A DNA stretch of 49,037 bases from a virus. Under the pieces are notes generated by a model. It worked only from the letters and a program-made list of their open reading frames with translations, searched no databases and had not been told where the DNA came from. Each line of letters starts with the position of its first letter. Within the stretch, counting starts at the first letter, position 1. The stretch covers positions 1 through 49,037 of the IMG/VR virus record IMGVR_UViG_3300020061_000002. One strand, 5' to 3'. The position numbers were made by a program, and so were the translations under genes. Positions 1 through 49,037 of this stretch are shown in pieces.

Positions 1-127
1 TACAATCAAATATAAAAAATCTCTCCAGTTATTTCACGTACTTTATATCTGTTAAATACAAATACAACTTTTACCCAATATCCGGACATTTACAGATAAA
101 CACTGCATTTATTGAAAAACCCGGTAA
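1..127. repeat. Terminal redundancy, left copy (circular junction)
   Basis: These 127 bases are identical to 48911-49037. They show that the contig closes on itself into a 48,910-bp unit. A length of exactly 127 is a common assembler k-mer size, so this is most likely an overlap of a circular or circularly permuted genome rather than a true virion terminal repeat. Confidence 0.95.
17..36 (+). repeat. 20-bp inverted repeat, right arm
   Basis: The sequence AAATCTCTCCAGTTATTTCA is the perfect reverse complement of 48381-48400. Across the circular junction the arms span 566 bp of the non-coding control region. Each arm presents the same 20-mer reading outward, this one toward the rightward genes. 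Function is unknown; a shared regulator site or a packaging or replication element are options. Confidence 0.85.
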
Positions 128-226
128 AAATGACTGTTTCTAAGCCCTCCTAAGGCCATTGCAATTCAATAGTTGAATGTATACCCATCTTTATCCGAAC
201 GCTTAACGTCGTACAATTATCCGAAC
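81..226 (+). promoter_or_regulatory. Three TCCGRAC operator-like motifs
   Basis: TCCGGAC occurs at 81-87 and TCCGAAC at 194-200 and 220-226. The last two belong to the longer shared string TATCCGAACGCTTA. The copy at 220 precedes a perfect TATAAT at 236-241, although the -35 region there is weak. Together with the copy at 264 they form a tandem array upstream of the first rightward gene. Confidence 0.55.
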
Positions 227-255
227 GCTTATATCTATAATATATGCAAAAACCC

Positions 256-284
256 TTGCGCTATCCGAACGCTTATGCTAGTAT
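256..284 (+). promoter_or_regulatory. Rightward promoter with motif in spacer
   Basis: The -35 is TTGCGC (256-261). A 17-bp spacer contains TATCCGAACGCTTA, and the extended -10 is TGC-TAGTAT (276-284). The predicted transcript starts near 291, with about 110 nt of leader before the gene at 402. The motif lies between the -35 and -10, the classical position for a repressor operator. Confidence 0.65.
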
Positions 285-8771: not shown

Positions 8772-9141
8772 CGAATTAAATTTACAGGTATTCGATGTTC
8801 ATATGGGCATGTTCGATTATGGCGTTCGTTTTTGCATCGGTGAATATAAAAAAGCAGTTGAATATGTTGCCTGGGTTTACAAAATAGATAAAGAAGATTT
8901 GTTCAAACCTATCCACGAACCTCGAGGCACATGCTTTAACCGCCCTGGATATGTACCAATAATATGGGTTGAAAAGAAACCGGAAACACCTCGAGAAATT
9001 GCAACCCTTGCACATGAATGTATCCATGCAATTTCATACATGTTCGATTGGGCTAATATGCCATTCTGCAATGAAACCGAAGAGGCATTTTGTCATGCTA
9101 CCGCTCACATAATGAATGTCGCGTTAGGAAAGATCAAATGA
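8755..9141 (+). CDS. Zincin-like metalloprotease fold protein, 128 aa
   Basis: HECIH at residues 87-91 fits the HExxH zinc motif, and Glu 109/110 within ETEEAFCH is a plausible third ligand about 20 residues on. Size and layout recall small phage or ImmA/SprT-like zincins. A substrate cannot be named; if active it might cleave a host regulator. TTG 8749 and ATG 8752 are alternative starts; ATG 8755 has the best spacing to AGG. Confidence 0.65.
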   Translation: MSKKANELNLQVFDVHMGMFDYGVRFCIGEYKKAVEYVAWVYKIDKEDLFKPIHEPRGTCFNRPGYVPIIWVEKKPETPREIATLAHECIHAISYMFDWANMPFCNETEEAFCHATAHIMNVALGKIK

Positions 9142-10388
9142 TCTATACCGCACGCGACTATCAGGTAGAGGGCAAGAACCGGGCTATTGAGCATCTACTT
9201 AAAAAAAAGCCTCACCCAATAGTGTTACAGATGGCCACTGGTGCTGGTAAGTCAATTGTGATTCGGGACATTGCACATGAGATCAAGACCGAACATCTAC
9301 CTAATGCGAAAATCTTGGTATTGCAACCAAGCAAGGAACTCGTAGAACAAAACTACGAAAAGATGATGGCCGTCGATGGGTTGGACATTGAAGTTGGTAT
9401 TTACTGCGCAGGATTGAAGCGCAAGGAAATCCGCGACATTACCTATGCAACTATCCAATCTATTTACCGGAAGCCTGAATTGTTCTTGGAATTCGAGATA
9501 GTGATCATTGATGAATGTCACCAGGTTAATCCGGAAAATCTCGAAGGCATGTATACGAAATTCCTAGAACAAATCGGGTGTAGGCGTGTCTTAGGGCTCA
9601 CCGCTACCCCATACCGCTTACGGCCATACTACTACTGGGAAGGTGATGAGCGCAGGCAGTCGGCCAAGATGGCGATGATCAACCGCATATATCCATTCTT
9701 CTTTAAGTCGATTATTTATCGAATTGAAACAGATGAGCTCATCGATCAAGGCTACCTCGCGCCGATACTGTACCGCAATGTAGAGATAGGCGAAATGTCA
9801 CAGCTAAGACTTACGACTACCGGCCAGGATTACACATACGAAAGTTTGAAGCAGTATTGGCTAGACGATATTCACATGATGAAAATGGCACAGGTAATTC
9901 AAAAGATAGATCAGTATTGCCAACGCAGCCTGACGTTCTGCGCGTCGATTGAACAGGCAGCCAGGGCTAAGGAAATGCTCGCAGAGATGGGTATCAAAGC
10001 CGAGATGGTATTTGGCGATACCAAGCCGAAGGAGCGGGCGCAGCTGGTGGCAGACTACCGAGCCGGCAAGTTTAAGCACATGCTTAATGTTGGGGTATTC
10101 ACTACTGGGTTTGATGTGCCGGCGTTGGACTGCATCATTTTAGCCAGGCAAACTATGAGCCTTGCGCTCTACTATCAGATGGTTGGCCGTGGAGTGCGCC
10201 TAGACCCGGAACGGCCACAGAAAAAATTACGTGTATATGATCTGGTCCGAGTGAGTGAAAAGCTCGGACGTGTTGAAACCATAAAAGTCGTAAGGGAGGA
10301 GCATGGATTTAGGGACAAGGTTATTTCAGAAGTCGGTAACATGACTGGCGTACCATTATTTGAATTTGCAGTTAATAAAAAGGAGTAA
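9138..10388 (+). CDS. SF2 DNA/RNA helicase, 416 aa
   Basis: Start set at the ATGA overlap with the preceding gene. Motifs in order: Walker A ATGAGKS (33-39), DECH box (125-128), TATP (155-158), the second RecA-like domain with TTGFDVPAL (322-330), and QMVGRGVR (347-354). This is a DEAD/DEAH-type helicase core of the ERCC3/RecQ-remote class common in phages, acting in replication or recombination. The arginine finger motif is intact, so it should hydrolyse ATP. Confidence 0.92.
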   Translation: MIYTARDYQVEGKNRAIEHLLKKKPHPIVLQMATGAGKSIVIRDIAHEIKTEHLPNAKILVLQPSKELVEQNYEKMMAVDGLDIEVGIYCAGLKRKEIRDITYATIQSIYRKPELFLEFEIVIIDECHQVNPENLEGMYTKFLEQIGCRRVLGLTATPYRLRPYYYWEGDERRQSAKMAMINRIYPFFFKSIIYRIETDELIDQGYLAPILYRNVEIGEMSQLRLTTTGQDYTYESLKQYWLDDIHMMKMAQVIQKIDQYCQRSLTFCASIEQAARAKEMLAEMGIKAEMVFGDTKPKERAQLVADYRAGKFKHMLNVGVFTTGFDVPALDCIILARQTMSLALYYQMVGRGVRLDPERPQKKLRVYDLVRVSEKLGRVETIKVVREEHGFRDKVISEVGNMTGVPLFEFAVNKKE

Positions 10389-10842: not shown

Positions 10843-11060
10843 TGATCTGGAGTTTTATCTTAGCGGCGATAGGTATTCTAGGCATTTACTTGGCTGGAAA
10901 GAATAACAAGTACGGTTGGGCCCTAGGTATATTTGCGCAATTACTGTGGTTTATATTTGCAATAGTCACAAAGCAATATGGATTCATAGCTAGTGCAGTA
11001 GCTTATGGGTATGTTTATACTTTAAATTTCTATAAGTGGCACAAGAAAGAAGCACGATAA
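10842..11060 (+). CDS. PnuC-like three-helix membrane protein, 72 aa
   Basis: Three hydrophobic helices (about residues 2-19, 25-43, 47-66) with polar turns GKNNKYGWALG and TKQYG. The spacing and the ...YGYVYTLNFYKW end resemble the C-terminal part of nicotinamide-riboside transporters of the PnuC family and phage relatives, but it is far shorter than a full transporter (about 200 aa). It may oligomerise. TAATG coupling on both sides. Confidence 0.6.
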   Translation: MIWSFILAAIGILGIYLAGKNNKYGWALGIFAQLLWFIFAIVTKQYGFIASAVAYGYVYTLNFYKWHKKEAR

Positions 11061-11704
11061 TGGATATCGCATATATCAACAAACCACACTATGACGATGT
11101 TGGATATGACAGTTGGATCGTCAATGAAGAACACCGGGTATTCGGGGTATTCGACGGAATGGGCGTTAGTGACGGGGCTAGGGCAGCAAGCATGATGCTT
11201 TCCAATAAATTCGGACAGGTAGCATCTACTGGGTTAAATGCAAAAGCGCTTGGAGAAGTCATTAACAGTGTCTCCAGGACACTTTCTAACATGTTCCCGA
11301 ATGATGGCTCTACGGCCACCGTAGTGCGCATCAACAGCGAAGGGCAGCTCTATTACGCAAGCATAGGCGATAGCCGCTTGTACGTGATGAGGAAGGGTCG
11401 CATAAAGCAAGTTACGTCCGACGAAGGACTTGGAAATATGCTCACGAATTATGTTGGCGCATATTCTCACGGGGTATGCCAGATCGGCGAGATTAACAGC
11501 GACGATTGGGATGCGTTTATGCTTTGCACAGATGGCATCACAGGTGACTGGCAGCCACAGTTTATTTATGACGATGAGATCGAACGGTTGTTTACCGATA
11601 GGCTAACTTCAAAAGAGATATGCCGCGATCTTGTCAGTATAAGTAAAAAAGATGATGATAAAACAGTCATTGTTGTTAATAAATATAAGGGGGAAAACCA
11701 ATAA
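11060..11704 (+). CDS. PP2C-family protein phosphatase, 214 aa
   Basis: A serine/threonine phosphatase of the metal-dependent PPM/PP2C family. Seen in order: N-terminal acidic DDVGYDSW (12-19), FDGMG (31-35) in place of FDGHG, GSTAT (83-87), YYASIGDSRLY (98-108), CTDGI (156-160) and DDDKT (198-202). The metal-binding Asp residues are present, so it should be active. It may dephosphorylate host Ser/Thr kinase substrates. Start at ATG 11060 shares the base of the previous stop; an in-frame ATG 24 nt upstream is unlikely. Confidence 0.85.
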   Translation: MDIAYINKPHYDDVGYDSWIVNEEHRVFGVFDGMGVSDGARAASMMLSNKFGQVASTGLNAKALGEVINSVSRTLSNMFPNDGSTATVVRINSEGQLYYASIGDSRLYVMRKGRIKQVTSDEGLGNMLTNYVGAYSHGVCQIGEINSDDWDAFMLCTDGITGDWQPQFIYDDEIERLFTDRLTSKEICRDLVSISKKDDDKTVIVVNKYKGENQ

Positions 11705-14584: not shown

Positions 14585-14639
14585 GGATATTGTATTTGTC
14601 AAACCTATTATTCCTGATCAATTGCAACTTGGGGATTGA
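14448..14639 (+). CDS. Small protein overlapping the helicase 3' end, 63 aa
   Basis: Open in the +1 frame from within the helicase tail to TGA at 14637. AAGG sits six bases before ATG 14448. The C-terminal part (VKVYWPPEKKVKVGNRLIAIKDIVFVKPIIP) looks like a real small beta domain. It overlaps the helicase by 137 nt, in exactly the low-complexity tail, which may be a consequence. Alternative start 14484. Confidence 0.45.
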   Translation: MPLIYKPDGTKSMKVTEEQLAVLKAVKVYWPPEKKVKVGNRLIAIKDIVFVKPIIPDQLQLGD

Positions 14640-14664
14640 CATTTTGTCCGAACTCATTTATGAT
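14636..14664 (+). promoter_or_regulatory. Promoter of the structured RNA and third operon
   Basis: Perfect TTGACA (14636-14641), 17-bp spacer with TCCGAAC (14647-14653), then TATGAT (14659-14664). Expected start near 14671. The spacer motif links it to the promoters at 256, 2972 and 3180. Confidence 0.8.
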
Positions 14665-14670
14665 GGGATA

Positions 14671-15087
14671 GTCGCACTTTAACAATTCGGTTGACCAGAG
14701 CATCAAGCAGATGAGGTAGTACCTTTTTAATTTGGAATGCCAATAACGTATTATTGGTGCTTATAAGTATAATTGCTTAAACACTTCAACCAGACGCTTG
14801 TCTGTTTGATGCTCTAGTCAGTCGACGACGAACATTAACAATTCAATTTAAGCAATCTGTTACGCCTATAGCGTAAGCGGCAATCCATGGTGGACCGGCC
14901 GGTAGATGGCTATAGGCACGTTGCGGGGAAGGATAATTAACGAAAAGAAGGAGATTCCTTTTGTTAGCTCTTACAAACCGTCCCCGCTTCGACCTGGTAA
15001 CGAACCTACTTTGTGGTGTCTACATTTAGTAATCTCGTTACCAGGTTCTATGTAACAGATTGCTTAAATAATTGGGAAAGGATAACC
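14671..15087 (+). ncRNA. Structured non-coding RNA or long leader, about 415 nt
   Basis: No open frame of note, but dense perfect pairing. Stem A: 14692-14711 with 14801-14820 (18 of 20 Watson-Crick, one G-U). Inside it a 7-bp hairpin, 14740-14746/14751-14757. Stem B: 14846-14862 with 15053-15069 (17 perfect). It closes a junction of three arms with 1-6 nt linkers: C (14864-14871/14910-14917), D (14923-14929/14981-14987) and E (14992-15003/15035-15046, 12 perfect). Arm D holds an inner stem at 14946-14962. No T-loop, tRNA half or group I/II core is seen. No terminator precedes the gene at 15088, so it may act in cis as a leader or be processed. I do not recognise the family. Confidence 0.8.
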
Positions 15088-15294
15088 ATGCAAGAAAAAT
15101 TCAAAGAACCTCGCACACTTGAAGAATTCAAAAAGTTAGCCGAGCCTGTCACTATAACTGGTGCAACCTCTGTTCTTAATGCTTTGAACAAGAAACTTGA
15201 AAAAGTGACAAAGCCACTCAAAACTGAAATCGAATTTTTCGAACAAGTACTTGAGTACAAGAAGAACAATAAACTGCCCGAAGGATTGGAATGA
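15088..15294 (+). CDS. Hypothetical helical protein, 68 aa
   Basis: Start set at ATG 15088 with AAAGGA; an upstream in-frame start would read through the structured RNA. Charged and helical (ATSVLNALNKKLEKVTKPLKTEIEFF). First gene after the RNA, its ribosome site 18 nt beyond stem B, so RNA folding could affect it. Confidence 0.7.
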   Translation: MQEKFKEPRTLEEFKKLAEPVTITGATSVLNALNKKLEKVTKPLKTEIEFFEQVLEYKKNNKLPEGLE

Positions 15295-42978: not shown

Positions 42979-43938
42979 TTAACTTTTGCCTGTCTCTTTG
43001 ATTAATCGTTCCTTCGATACGCCCATTTTCTGTGCGAGTGTCAAAGTAAGATTACTAAACTGCTTAGCGTTTCCGCCACCCTTCGCAGTCTTTTTAGGTC
43101 GATTCGGTCGGACAGGTGCCGCATCGCCCTTTAGCCCGTCAACAAGGTCTTGATTCGCTTTCGTCTTCACGTCGCGGCCTAGATAAGCATACGCTTTTTC
43201 CATCGCCTCGCCGCCCATCATAAGGCGTCCGCTCTTCTGGAGCTCCATCTGCGAGAAGTGTCGCATAAGCTCCTTGACCTCTTTGTTCAATTTAGGGTCG
43301 GTCATTACTTCGGGGTTATTATCAACGAATTCTTTGGTGTTTAACTCGTTCTTGGCTTTCCACTCTGTCTTTGCATTAGTGAGGAACGGGTCCTCTGCAA
43401 CATCAGCTTGTCCGCCGCCATCACCGCCACGATCCGAACCGCCACCTGAACCACCGTTGCCGTCCACGTCCAATAATTTGAGCAGTTGCTTTCCGAACTC
43501 TGGGTCCTTATTTGCAGCTTCTCGTATGGCCGTAACTTGACGCTCGTATGTTTCTGCGCGGTCATTCGCATCATTAAGCTGTGTAGCTTGATCGATATAC
43601 GCACTTTCAATATTCTTCGTGTAAGATCCCCTCTTACCGTCACCCTTGAACTGGGGCAATTTCACATCAGATTTTCCATCATCATCGGCATTGGCTGCAT
43701 CATCGTCGTCGGCGCCATTTCCTGCGTCGTCGTCTCCGCTACCATCATCGTCGTTGTTGAGGTCGTCTGCCTCCGCGTTTGCACCACCCTTATCGGCTGT
43801 GTCTAATTTATCATCATCGTCTTGATCGTCCTCTGCCGCTTCACCCGGAGCATCCGGGGCGTTTTGGACCGCATCACGAATCTGATCCTGAAAACTACCT
43901 TTAGGTTTTGCATCTGCATCATCGGTTTTATCTGCCAT
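42979..43938 (-). CDS. Scaffold protein candidate, 319 aa
   Basis: A very acidic, Asp-rich N-terminal region (about 30-95), a coiled-coil-prone middle (AYIDQATQLNDANDRAET), a Gly-rich linker, then a helical region and a basic C-terminus (RPNRPKKTAKGGG, then ALAQKMGVSKERLIKETGKS). Composition, size and position before decoration and capsid genes fit an internal scaffold. Confidence 0.75.
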   Translation of the reverse strand: MADKTDDADAKPKGSFQDQIRDAVQNAPDAPGEAAEDDQDDDDKLDTADKGGANAEADDLNNDDDGSGDDDAGNGADDDDAANADDDGKSDVKLPQFKGDGKRGSYTKNIESAYIDQATQLNDANDRAETYERQVTAIREAANKDPEFGKQLLKLLDVDGNGGSGGGSDRGGDGGGQADVAEDPFLTNAKTEWKAKNELNTKEFVDNNPEVMTDPKLNKEVKELMRHFSQMELQKSGRLMMGGEAMEKAYAYLGRDVKTKANQDLVDGLKGDAAPVRPNRPKKTAKGGGNAKQFSNLTLTLAQKMGVSKERLIKETGKS

Positions 43939-43976
43939 TTTAAAATACTCCTGTCGGTCTCTTTCGAGGGTCCCGC

Positions 43977-43982
43977 ATTATA
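43977..43982 (-). promoter_or_regulatory. Possible -10 box before the scaffold gene
   Basis: Minus strand TATAAT about 38 nt upstream of the scaffold start, in the 94-bp gap, without a good -35. A nearby ATCACC/GGTGAT dyad (44015-44000 region) might be an operator. Weak evidence. Confidence 0.3.
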
Positions 43983-44032
43983 TGTTAATACCATCACCCC
44001 GCTTGGCTGCTTGGTGATCAAGTAGGGGCTGC

Positions 44033-44431
44033 CTACTTAACCTTGGAGATTAATTCGCGTTGACCGGGAGTGGATGAGGCCGGCTTAGGTGCCGTTTTCT
44101 TCTCGGTTCTTTTATCTTCCGCCTTATTGAATTGCTTAACAATCTCTTCAATCATTTTTGGAACGTATGCGTTCTCTGCGGCACACCCTCGGTAAAATTG
44201 TACATTCTCAATAGTCGGTTGGCTATTGATAGAAGTAGTTGCAATTTGGATCGCCCGTTGCTTGAACCAAACATTTTTTAAAATATTCCATTCAGGACTG
44301 GCTACCAATTTTGCGAGCAAAACCTTTTCCGTCTTGGTGATATCAATACTACCAAGCTTATATTCTTCGTTGAATAGGTTATTGCGATTTCGAGGTGCAA
44401 GTGGTGTTATGTCGTCGTTCGTCTTTTTCAT
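44033..44431 (-). CDS. Hypothetical protein, 132 aa
   Basis: Between portal and scaffold. A helical core (TEKVLLAKLVASPEWNILKNVWFKQRAIQIATTSI) and a Lys/Pro/Thr tail. Position suggests a head-assembly or connector accessory. No family recognised. Confidence 0.68.
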   Translation of the reverse strand: MKKTNDDITPLAPRNRNNLFNEEYKLGSIDITKTEKVLLAKLVASPEWNILKNVWFKQRAIQIATTSINSQPTIENVQFYRGCAAENAYVPKMIEEIVKQFNKAEDKRTEKKTAPKPASSTPGQRELISKVK

Positions 44432-48910: not shown

Positions 48911-49037
48911 TACAATCAAATATAAAAAATCTCTCCAGTTATTTCACGTACTTTATATCTGTTAAATACAAATACAACTTTTACCCAATATCCGGACATT
49001 TACAGATAAACACTGCATTTATTGAAAAACCCGGTAA
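48911..49037. repeat. Terminal redundancy, right copy
   Basis: Exact duplicate of positions 1-127, running to the last base of the window. Anything annotated in 1-127 occurs only once per real genome. Confidence 0.95.

What the first reader, a model, noticed from the sequence alone, without database searches (positions are those of the whole stretch)
14671..15087. Undescribed ~415-nt structured RNA with a three-arm junction
Directly after a near-consensus promoter there is no open frame but heavy complementarity. A 20-nt stem A (18 pairs plus a wobble) is followed by a 17-bp perfect stem B closing three consecutive arms C (8 bp), D (7 bp) and E (12 bp) with only 1-6 nt between them. Such nested pairing cannot be chance. 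I find no tRNA, tmRNA or group I/II features. Large ornate RNAs encoded by phages (for example GOLLD and ROOL) are known, but this is smaller, and I do not recognise it as either. It could be a free RNA or a cis-acting leader for the operon at 15088. This is my leading candidate for an undescribed system.
Basis: partly seen in the sequence, partly recalled or inferred. Interest (0 to 1): 0.9.

Follow-up and report, generated by a model that had tools for sequence, protein, structure and literature searches.

The report
Phage leader copying ribosomal-RNA operon design
This phage starts one of its operons with a 415-nucleotide non-coding RNA built like the leader of a bacterial ribosomal-RNA operon (a "boxA" binding site directly followed by a long paired stem, twice in a row), and similar units turn up in unrelated phages, which suggests that these viruses borrow the host's rRNA-transcription machinery for their own genes.

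Summary
The structure is real: z = -10.4, no Rfam family, no coding frame, and promoter and layout conserved in two relatives. Stems B, C and E carry 14 two-sided compensatory changes and no broken pair between the window and L001. Each hairpin is directly preceded by a boxA-like site: GCACTTTAACAATT (14674) and GAACATTAACAATT (14830). The first is the window's best match to E. coli rrn boxA and starts about 3 nt after the predicted start site. Both are exact 14-mers found upstream of 16S genes in Patescibacteria or Patescibacteria-like genomes. In E. coli and an Anaerolineae rrn operon, boxA is likewise followed at once by the leader-trailer helix.

The same boxA-helix unit recurs in at least two unrelated metagenomic phages (L130, L139) and in isolated Pseudomonas phages: PA11-like Zobellviridae (24- and 30-bp helices, loops holding small genes) and HHBS14_1.

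Best explanation: a cis-acting operon leader of two rrn-type boxA modules. It would recruit host NusB/S10 to make RNA polymerase processive and help close the long helices, which look like RNase III substrates. It is probably not a free ornate RNA. Nus binding, antitermination and processing are inferred, not shown. New variant of a known kind.

The parts
14636..14664 (+). sigma-70-type promoter TTGACA-17-TATGAT; start site about 14671
   Evidence: sequence conserved in L001 and L002
14674..14687 (+). boxA1, GCACTTTAACAATT
   Evidence: best match to E. coli rrn boxA in the window, 13 of 14; exact 14-mer upstream of 16S in Patescibacteria locus L186
14688..14717 (+). stem A, 5' strand, starts 0 nt after boxA1
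   Evidence: duplex -37.5 kcal/mol, 0 of 150 random positions as good
14718..14793 (+). loop of hairpin A with two small hairpins
14794..14824 (+). stem A, 3' strand, ends 5 nt before boxA2
14830..14843 (+). boxA2, GAACATTAACAATT
   Evidence: exact 14-mer upstream of 16S in L172 and L173; identical in both L001 copies
14846..14863 (+). stem B, 5' strand, starts 2 nt after boxA2
   Evidence: 7 of 17 pairs changed on both sides in L001, none broken
14864..14917 (+). arm C (9-bp base)
   Evidence: 3 of 8 pairs compensatory in L001, none broken
14883..14896 (+). conserved apical motif ATCCRTGGTGGACC in arm C, shared with L001
14919..14991 (+). arm D
14992..15046 (+). arm E (12-bp base)
   Evidence: 4 of 12 pairs compensatory in L001, none broken
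15052..15069 (+). stem B, 3' strand, 4 nt before the ribosome-binding site
15074..15082 (+). ribosome-binding site GGGAAAGGA
   Evidence: sequence; conserved in L001
15088..15294 (+). first gene of the operon, 68 aa, unknown function, conserved in L001 and L002
   Evidence: no Pfam or PHROG family

Best explanation
The element is the 5' leader of a phage replication/recombination operon (68-aa protein, SSB-like, RusA-like, RecA-like genes). It is made of two tandem modules of ribosomal-RNA type: boxA followed at once by the 5' strand of a long helix that closes over 76-188 nt. SHOWN here: the promoter, the two boxA-like sites, the two helices and their adjacency, conservation of this layout with compensatory stem changes, and recurrence of the unit in unrelated phages. 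INFERRED: as boxA emerges from RNA polymerase, host NusB-S10, with NusA/NusG and, where present, SuhB, binds it and stays on the polymerase. This makes elongation processive and Rho-resistant over the untranslated leader and the operon behind it. It also tethers the 5' strand until its partner is made, so the long helix closes efficiently. The helices are then probably cut by RNase III, leaving a trimmed mRNA start a few nt before the first ribosome-binding site. No phage N protein or boxB is needed, as in rrn operons.
For: boxA identity: 14674 is the best match (13/14) to the E. coli rrn boxA of L035 on both strands of the window. Two exact boxA-like sites in 417 nt have P about 1.4e-4. Both 14-mers are rrn-leader 14-mers of Patescibacteria or Patescibacteria-like genomes. 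Anatomy: helices start 0 and 2 nt after boxA; duplex energies beat 150/150 and 148/150 random positions. The positive controls, E. coli rrnB and the Anaerolineae L176 rrn (boxA ACATTAACAATT), have the same adjacency. Conservation: L001 has both boxA sites, both helices and three arms with 14 compensatory and no broken pairs in B, C, E; L002 has boxA2 plus a 24-bp helix. Recurrence in unrelated phages: L130 and L139; Pseudomonas phage PA11, two modules with 24- and 30-bp helices at gap 0; K4, PP21, PPAT, Ty, FBPa8, HHBS10_2; HHBS14_1, a 20-bp perfect helix. The phage has no NusB gene; NusB is in 26 of 29 sampled Patescibacteria genomes.
Against: No binding, antitermination or processing data. 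boxA2 departs from the gammaproteobacterial consensus GYTCTTTAANA (PMC5725501) at three of 11 positions, so it would be doubtful in a gammaproteobacterial host; the host is not known. L002 keeps only one recognisable boxA. Stem A shows fewer compensatory changes and four broken cells of 18 in my ungapped comparison, although both sequences form a long stem there. In CVT22, VR7901, L106 and L252, boxA sites lack a statistically significant adjacent helix. Rho-dependent terminators in the operon were not tested.
Confidence: 0.68

Rival explanations
1. Pre-rRNA decoy: the abundant leader, liberated by RNase III, titrates NusB/S10/SuhB (or RNase III and processing factors) away from the host rrn operons and so lowers host ribosome synthesis; antitermination of the phage operon is secondary.
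For: Two rrn-type boxA sites and two leader-trailer-like helices in one short RNA at a strong promoter; the extra arms C-E would be needless for antitermination alone.
Against: The element lies in cis, directly before an operon, in all three relatives; in PA11-type phages the loops hold genes with ribosome-binding sites; no terminator follows the RNA.
Confidence: 0.12
2. Only an RNase III-type processing and mRNA-stabilising leader; the boxA resemblance is incidental or relic.
For: Long perfect helices ending just before the ribosome-binding site, as in RNase III-processed phage mRNAs (established knowledge of T7 and lambda N leaders).
Against: boxA sites are the most conserved sequence while the stems diverge, and boxA sits directly before the helix in unrelated phages.
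Confidence: 0.1
3. A regulator that senses a ligand or protein through the three-arm junction and controls the 68-aa gene (riboswitch-like or autoregulated leader).
For: Three-arm junction kept in L001, with the conserved apical motif ATCCRTGGTGGACC in arm C.
Against: L002 lacks the arms although it keeps the gene, the promoter and the boxA2-helix unit; no alternative fold that hides the ribosome-binding site was seen.
Confidence: 0.06
4. A put-like RNA that binds RNA polymerase directly, or a free ornate RNA of the GOLLD/ROOL type.
For: Phage-encoded, structured, close to a promoter.
Against: No Rfam match; by my recollection HK022 put is far smaller and made of two short stem-loops (its action: PMC9378689); stem sequence is not conserved between relatives, unlike an RNA that contacts RNAP by sequence; no terminator before the gene.
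Confidence: 0.04

Closest known systems
Bacterial rrn leader (boxA + 16S/23S leader-trailer helix, rrnTAC; PMC10250234)
   Same: boxA directly followed by the 5' strand of a long helix, two such units in tandem, promoter-proximal, no boxB-N protein needed; checked on E. coli rrnB and an Anaerolineae rrn.
   Different: Encloses no rRNA; 76-188 nt loops instead of 1.5-2.9 kb; drives a protein-coding phage operon.
Lambda nutL / N leader with RNase III stem
   Same: Promoter, boxA, structured leader with a long stem, then the ribosome-binding site of the first gene (distance and structure noted in PMC5725501; RNase III role recalled).
   Different: No boxB-like short hairpin and no N-like gene recognised; boxA abuts the long helix itself; two units.
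suhB leader boxA and other boxA-regulated genes (PMC5725501)
   Same: boxA used outside rrn for a protein-coding gene.
HK022 put RNA
   Same: Phage cis-acting structured leader RNA without a phage protein.
   Different: Acts directly on RNAP without boxA; not similar in size or sequence.
GOLLD, ROOL and other large ornate phage RNAs (Rfam)
   Same: Large structured phage-encoded RNA.
   Different: No Rfam match even at E <= 10; a leader rather than a conserved free RNA.

Membership tests
rrn-type boxA antitermination leader | boxA sequence (gamma consensus GYTCTTTAANA; host-type variants elsewhere) | tested here: met
   boxA1 13/14 to E. coli; boxA1 and boxA2 are exact rrn-leader 14-mers of Patescibacteria-type genomes. 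boxA2 fails the gamma consensus.
rrn-type boxA antitermination leader | leader-trailer type helix beginning directly after boxA | tested here: met
   gap 0 and 2 nt; energies beyond 150/150 and 148/150 random positions; controls
rrn-type boxA antitermination leader | NusB-S10 binding and resistance to Rho | not testable with these tools
   needs biochemistry
rrn-type boxA antitermination leader | transcription of rRNA | tested here: not met
   no rRNA or other Rfam family in the window
lambdoid nut site | boxB hairpin just after boxA plus a phage N protein | tested here: not met
   the hairpins after boxA are 18-29 bp long, not a boxB-like short hairpin; none of the window proteins scanned matched an N-type antiterminator family (not every ORF was scanned)
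Known Rfam RNA family (incl. GOLLD, ROOL, OLE, HEARO) | score at or above the family's gathering cut-off | tested here: not met
HK022 put RNA | two short stem-loops that act on RNAP without Nus factors | tested here: inconclusive
   architecture differs; factor dependence not testable

The most novel reading that the evidence does not exclude
Phages of very different hosts independently carry or exchange a portable rRNA-operon mimic, 'boxA + long helix' modules matched to the host's own rrn boxA, as their main Nus-dependent processivity and RNA-processing signal, with genes or RNA domains as cargo in the loops. This includes a phage of the barely known Patescibacteria (CPR), which makes it a window on how such cells' rRNA-type transcription is usurped.
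Probability: 0.35. Interest if true: 0.88.

Novelty: new variant of a known kind. Interest (0 to 1): 0.72.

Why it matters
boxA/Nus control is taught as a feature of rRNA operons, lambdoid phages (with N and boxB) and a few host genes. A phage leader assembled from rrn-type boxA-helix units, recurring in unrelated phages including isolated Pseudomonas phages, would show a second, N-independent route by which phages take over Nus antitermination. It would also offer a small model to test how boxA tethering helps a long-range helix close, which is an open question for rRNA maturation. The boxA variant may also serve as a host marker for phages of uncultured bacteria.

Tried and rejected
Rfam, at curated cut-offs and at E <= 10: nothing. 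tRNA/tmRNA: none. BLASTN of the region in named phages: no homologue. Helicase, RecA-like, 68-aa protein and promoter-pattern scans of viral contigs found only two relatives, L001 and L002. Helicase scan of genome contigs: none. Pattern boxA2...TCCNTGGTGGA: 60 hits, all chance except L001. Two-boxA pattern scans gave 189 stretches; after fold filtering only the window, L001, L130 and L139 pass convincingly, while L259 is a coding region on the other strand and most others are chance. L106, L252, CVT22 and VR7901 have boxA in long leaders or stretches without large frames but no significant adjacent helix. RecA profile search in Patescibacteria only found cellular-type RecA and says nothing about the host. 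Late-operon start (48.3-49.0 kb) shows no boxA. Papers: no description of such modules found in the open-access library; subscription papers are not covered.

Full report
THE OBSERVATION. The region 14671-15087 folds at -157.8 kcal/mol, z = -10.4 against dinucleotide shuffles. The promoter TTGACA-17-TATGAT (14636-14664) is the best sigma-70-type site in the scanned part of the window. There is no Rfam family, no tRNA and no reading frame other than an upstream extension of the next gene.

RELATIVES. Two metagenomic phages carry the same gene order (DnaB-like helicase, this region, 68-69-aa gene, SSB-like gene and so on): L001 (helicase 72% identical) and L002 (61%). Both keep the promoter and a structured leader of 403 and 238 nt. 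Between the window and L001 the stem sequences differ widely, but the fold is the same including the three-arm junction. Stem B has 7 two-sided changes in 17 pairs, arm C 3 in 8 and arm E 4 in 12, all without a broken pair. Stem A is long in both but aligns less cleanly (3 two-sided changes, 4 broken of 18). L002 keeps hairpin A and a 24-bp stem B, but not the arms. The only long conserved sequence inside the arms is ATCCRTGGTGGACC at the tip of arm C.

THE KEY FEATURE. Directly before each hairpin lies a near-identical motif: GCACTTTAACAATT (14674-14687) and GAACATTAACAATT (14830-14843). E. coli rrnB has GCTCTTTAACAATT directly before the leader strand of its leader-trailer helix. The site at 14674 is the best match to it in both strands of the whole window (13/14) and starts about 3 nt after the predicted transcription start. 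Exact boxA-like 11-mers occur four times in the window; two falling within this leader has P about 1.4e-4. The helices start 0 and 2 nt after boxA, and their duplex energies exceed 150 of 150 and 148 of 150 random positions. The same adjacency holds in the two rrn controls, E. coli rrnB and an Anaerolineae operon whose boxA reads ACATTAACAATT.

HOST HINT. ACATTAACAATT placed 91-151 nt upstream of a 16S gene occurs in only five of about 85,000 species genomes: a Saccharibacteria, a Falkowbacteria, two unnamed 0.9-Mb genomes with Patescibacteria-like 16S starts, and one Anaerolineae. Two of them (L172, L173) read GAACATTAACAATT, the exact 14-mer of boxA2. A Patescibacteria locus, L186, reads GCACTTTAACAATT, the exact 14-mer of boxA1. 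NusB is present in 26 of 29 sampled Patescibacteria and absent from the phage. A Patescibacteria host is therefore plausible but not shown; the scan covers only part of the possible boxA positions.

A CLASS, NOT A SINGLE CASE. A scan for two boxA sites 126-156 nt apart, filtered for a stem filling the interval, returned two further, unrelated phages, L139 and L130. Each has boxA, hairpin, boxA, branched hairpin, small gene. In L139 the first helix starts 11 nt after boxA and is not significant by the simple adjacency measure, the other three are. In isolated phages the unit is clear in Pseudomonas phage PA11 (Zobellviridae). GTTCTTTAACA at 43587 is followed at gap 0 by a 24-bp helix that closes 299 nt later, exactly before a second GTTCTTTAACA at 43897. 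That one is followed at gap 0 by a 30-bp helix spanning 242 nt. The loops hold the small genes ORF054 and ORF055. Relatives K4, PP21, PPAT, Ty, FBPa8 and HHBS10_2 keep the second module; PPAT keeps both with changed but paired stems. HHBS14_1 (39 kb) has boxA plus a 20-bp perfect helix around a small gene, and the old partial PLS27 record (filed as Teseptimavirus) has boxA and the same 5' strand. boxA sites without a significant helix occur in the early leaders of CVT22 and VR7901 and in L106 and L252.

MECHANISM. Established: NusB-S10 binds boxA and, with NusA, NusG and SuhB, modifies RNA polymerase. In rRNA the 5' strand is proposed to stay tethered until the trailer emerges, so the leader-trailer helix can form (PMC10250234). 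boxA is also used outside rrn (PMC5725501). Applied here, this gives a leader that loads the Nus complex twice, keeps polymerase processive through untranslated RNA and the operon behind, and folds into long helices that RNase III can cut just before the first ribosome-binding site. Loading, processivity and cutting are inferences; the anatomy and its recurrence are shown.

STANDING. It works like an rrn boxA leader but is not an rRNA operon, and it is not a lambdoid nut site (no boxB-type hairpin and no N-type family match in the proteins scanned). I file it as a new variant of a known kind: a phage leader of tandem rrn-type boxA-helix modules. The open-access literature searched does not describe it.

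Noticed in passing
L307 (Pseudomonas phage PA11 NC_007808) 43580-44140; L315 (HHBS14_1) 1494-1760; L314 (PLS27) 827-890: In the Pseudomonas modules the 5' strand of the boxA helix can instead pair locally (GTAGTG...CACTAC) around the AGGAGG ribosome-binding site of the enclosed gene, so closing the long helix could switch that gene on; the segment is nearly identical in phages filed under different families.
   Followed up: partly
window 1-127 and 48911-49037: The record has a perfect 127-bp direct terminal repeat, so the phage genome is probably complete.
   Followed up: yes
window 194-271 and 48893: Three copies of ATCCGAACGCTTA in the left intergenic region and one related copy (ATCCGAACGTTTA) near the right end, the region between the divergent early and late genes: possible regulator or origin repeats.
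   Followed up: no
window 14883-14896: ATCCRTGGTGGACC at the tip of arm C is identical (one R) in the window and L001 although the surrounding stems have diverged: a possible protein-binding site.
   Followed up: partly
window 11036-11704: Phage-encoded SpoIIE/PP2C-type protein phosphatase domain, beside a 305-aa protein with no PHROG or Pfam match.
   Followed up: no
L106 rc 8895-9599 (IMGVR 3300014710_000026) and L252 1280-1750: Long stretches without large reading frames carrying two or three canonical gammaproteobacterial-type boxA sites (GCTCTTTAACAATT and GATCTTTAACAATT); L106 has a PA11-like portal gene.
   Followed up: partly
L130 rc 2384-2412: Within the second boxA hairpin a stretch GGAGGTTCGATTCCACC resembles a tRNA T-arm, but ARAGORN finds no tRNA.
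   Followed up: no
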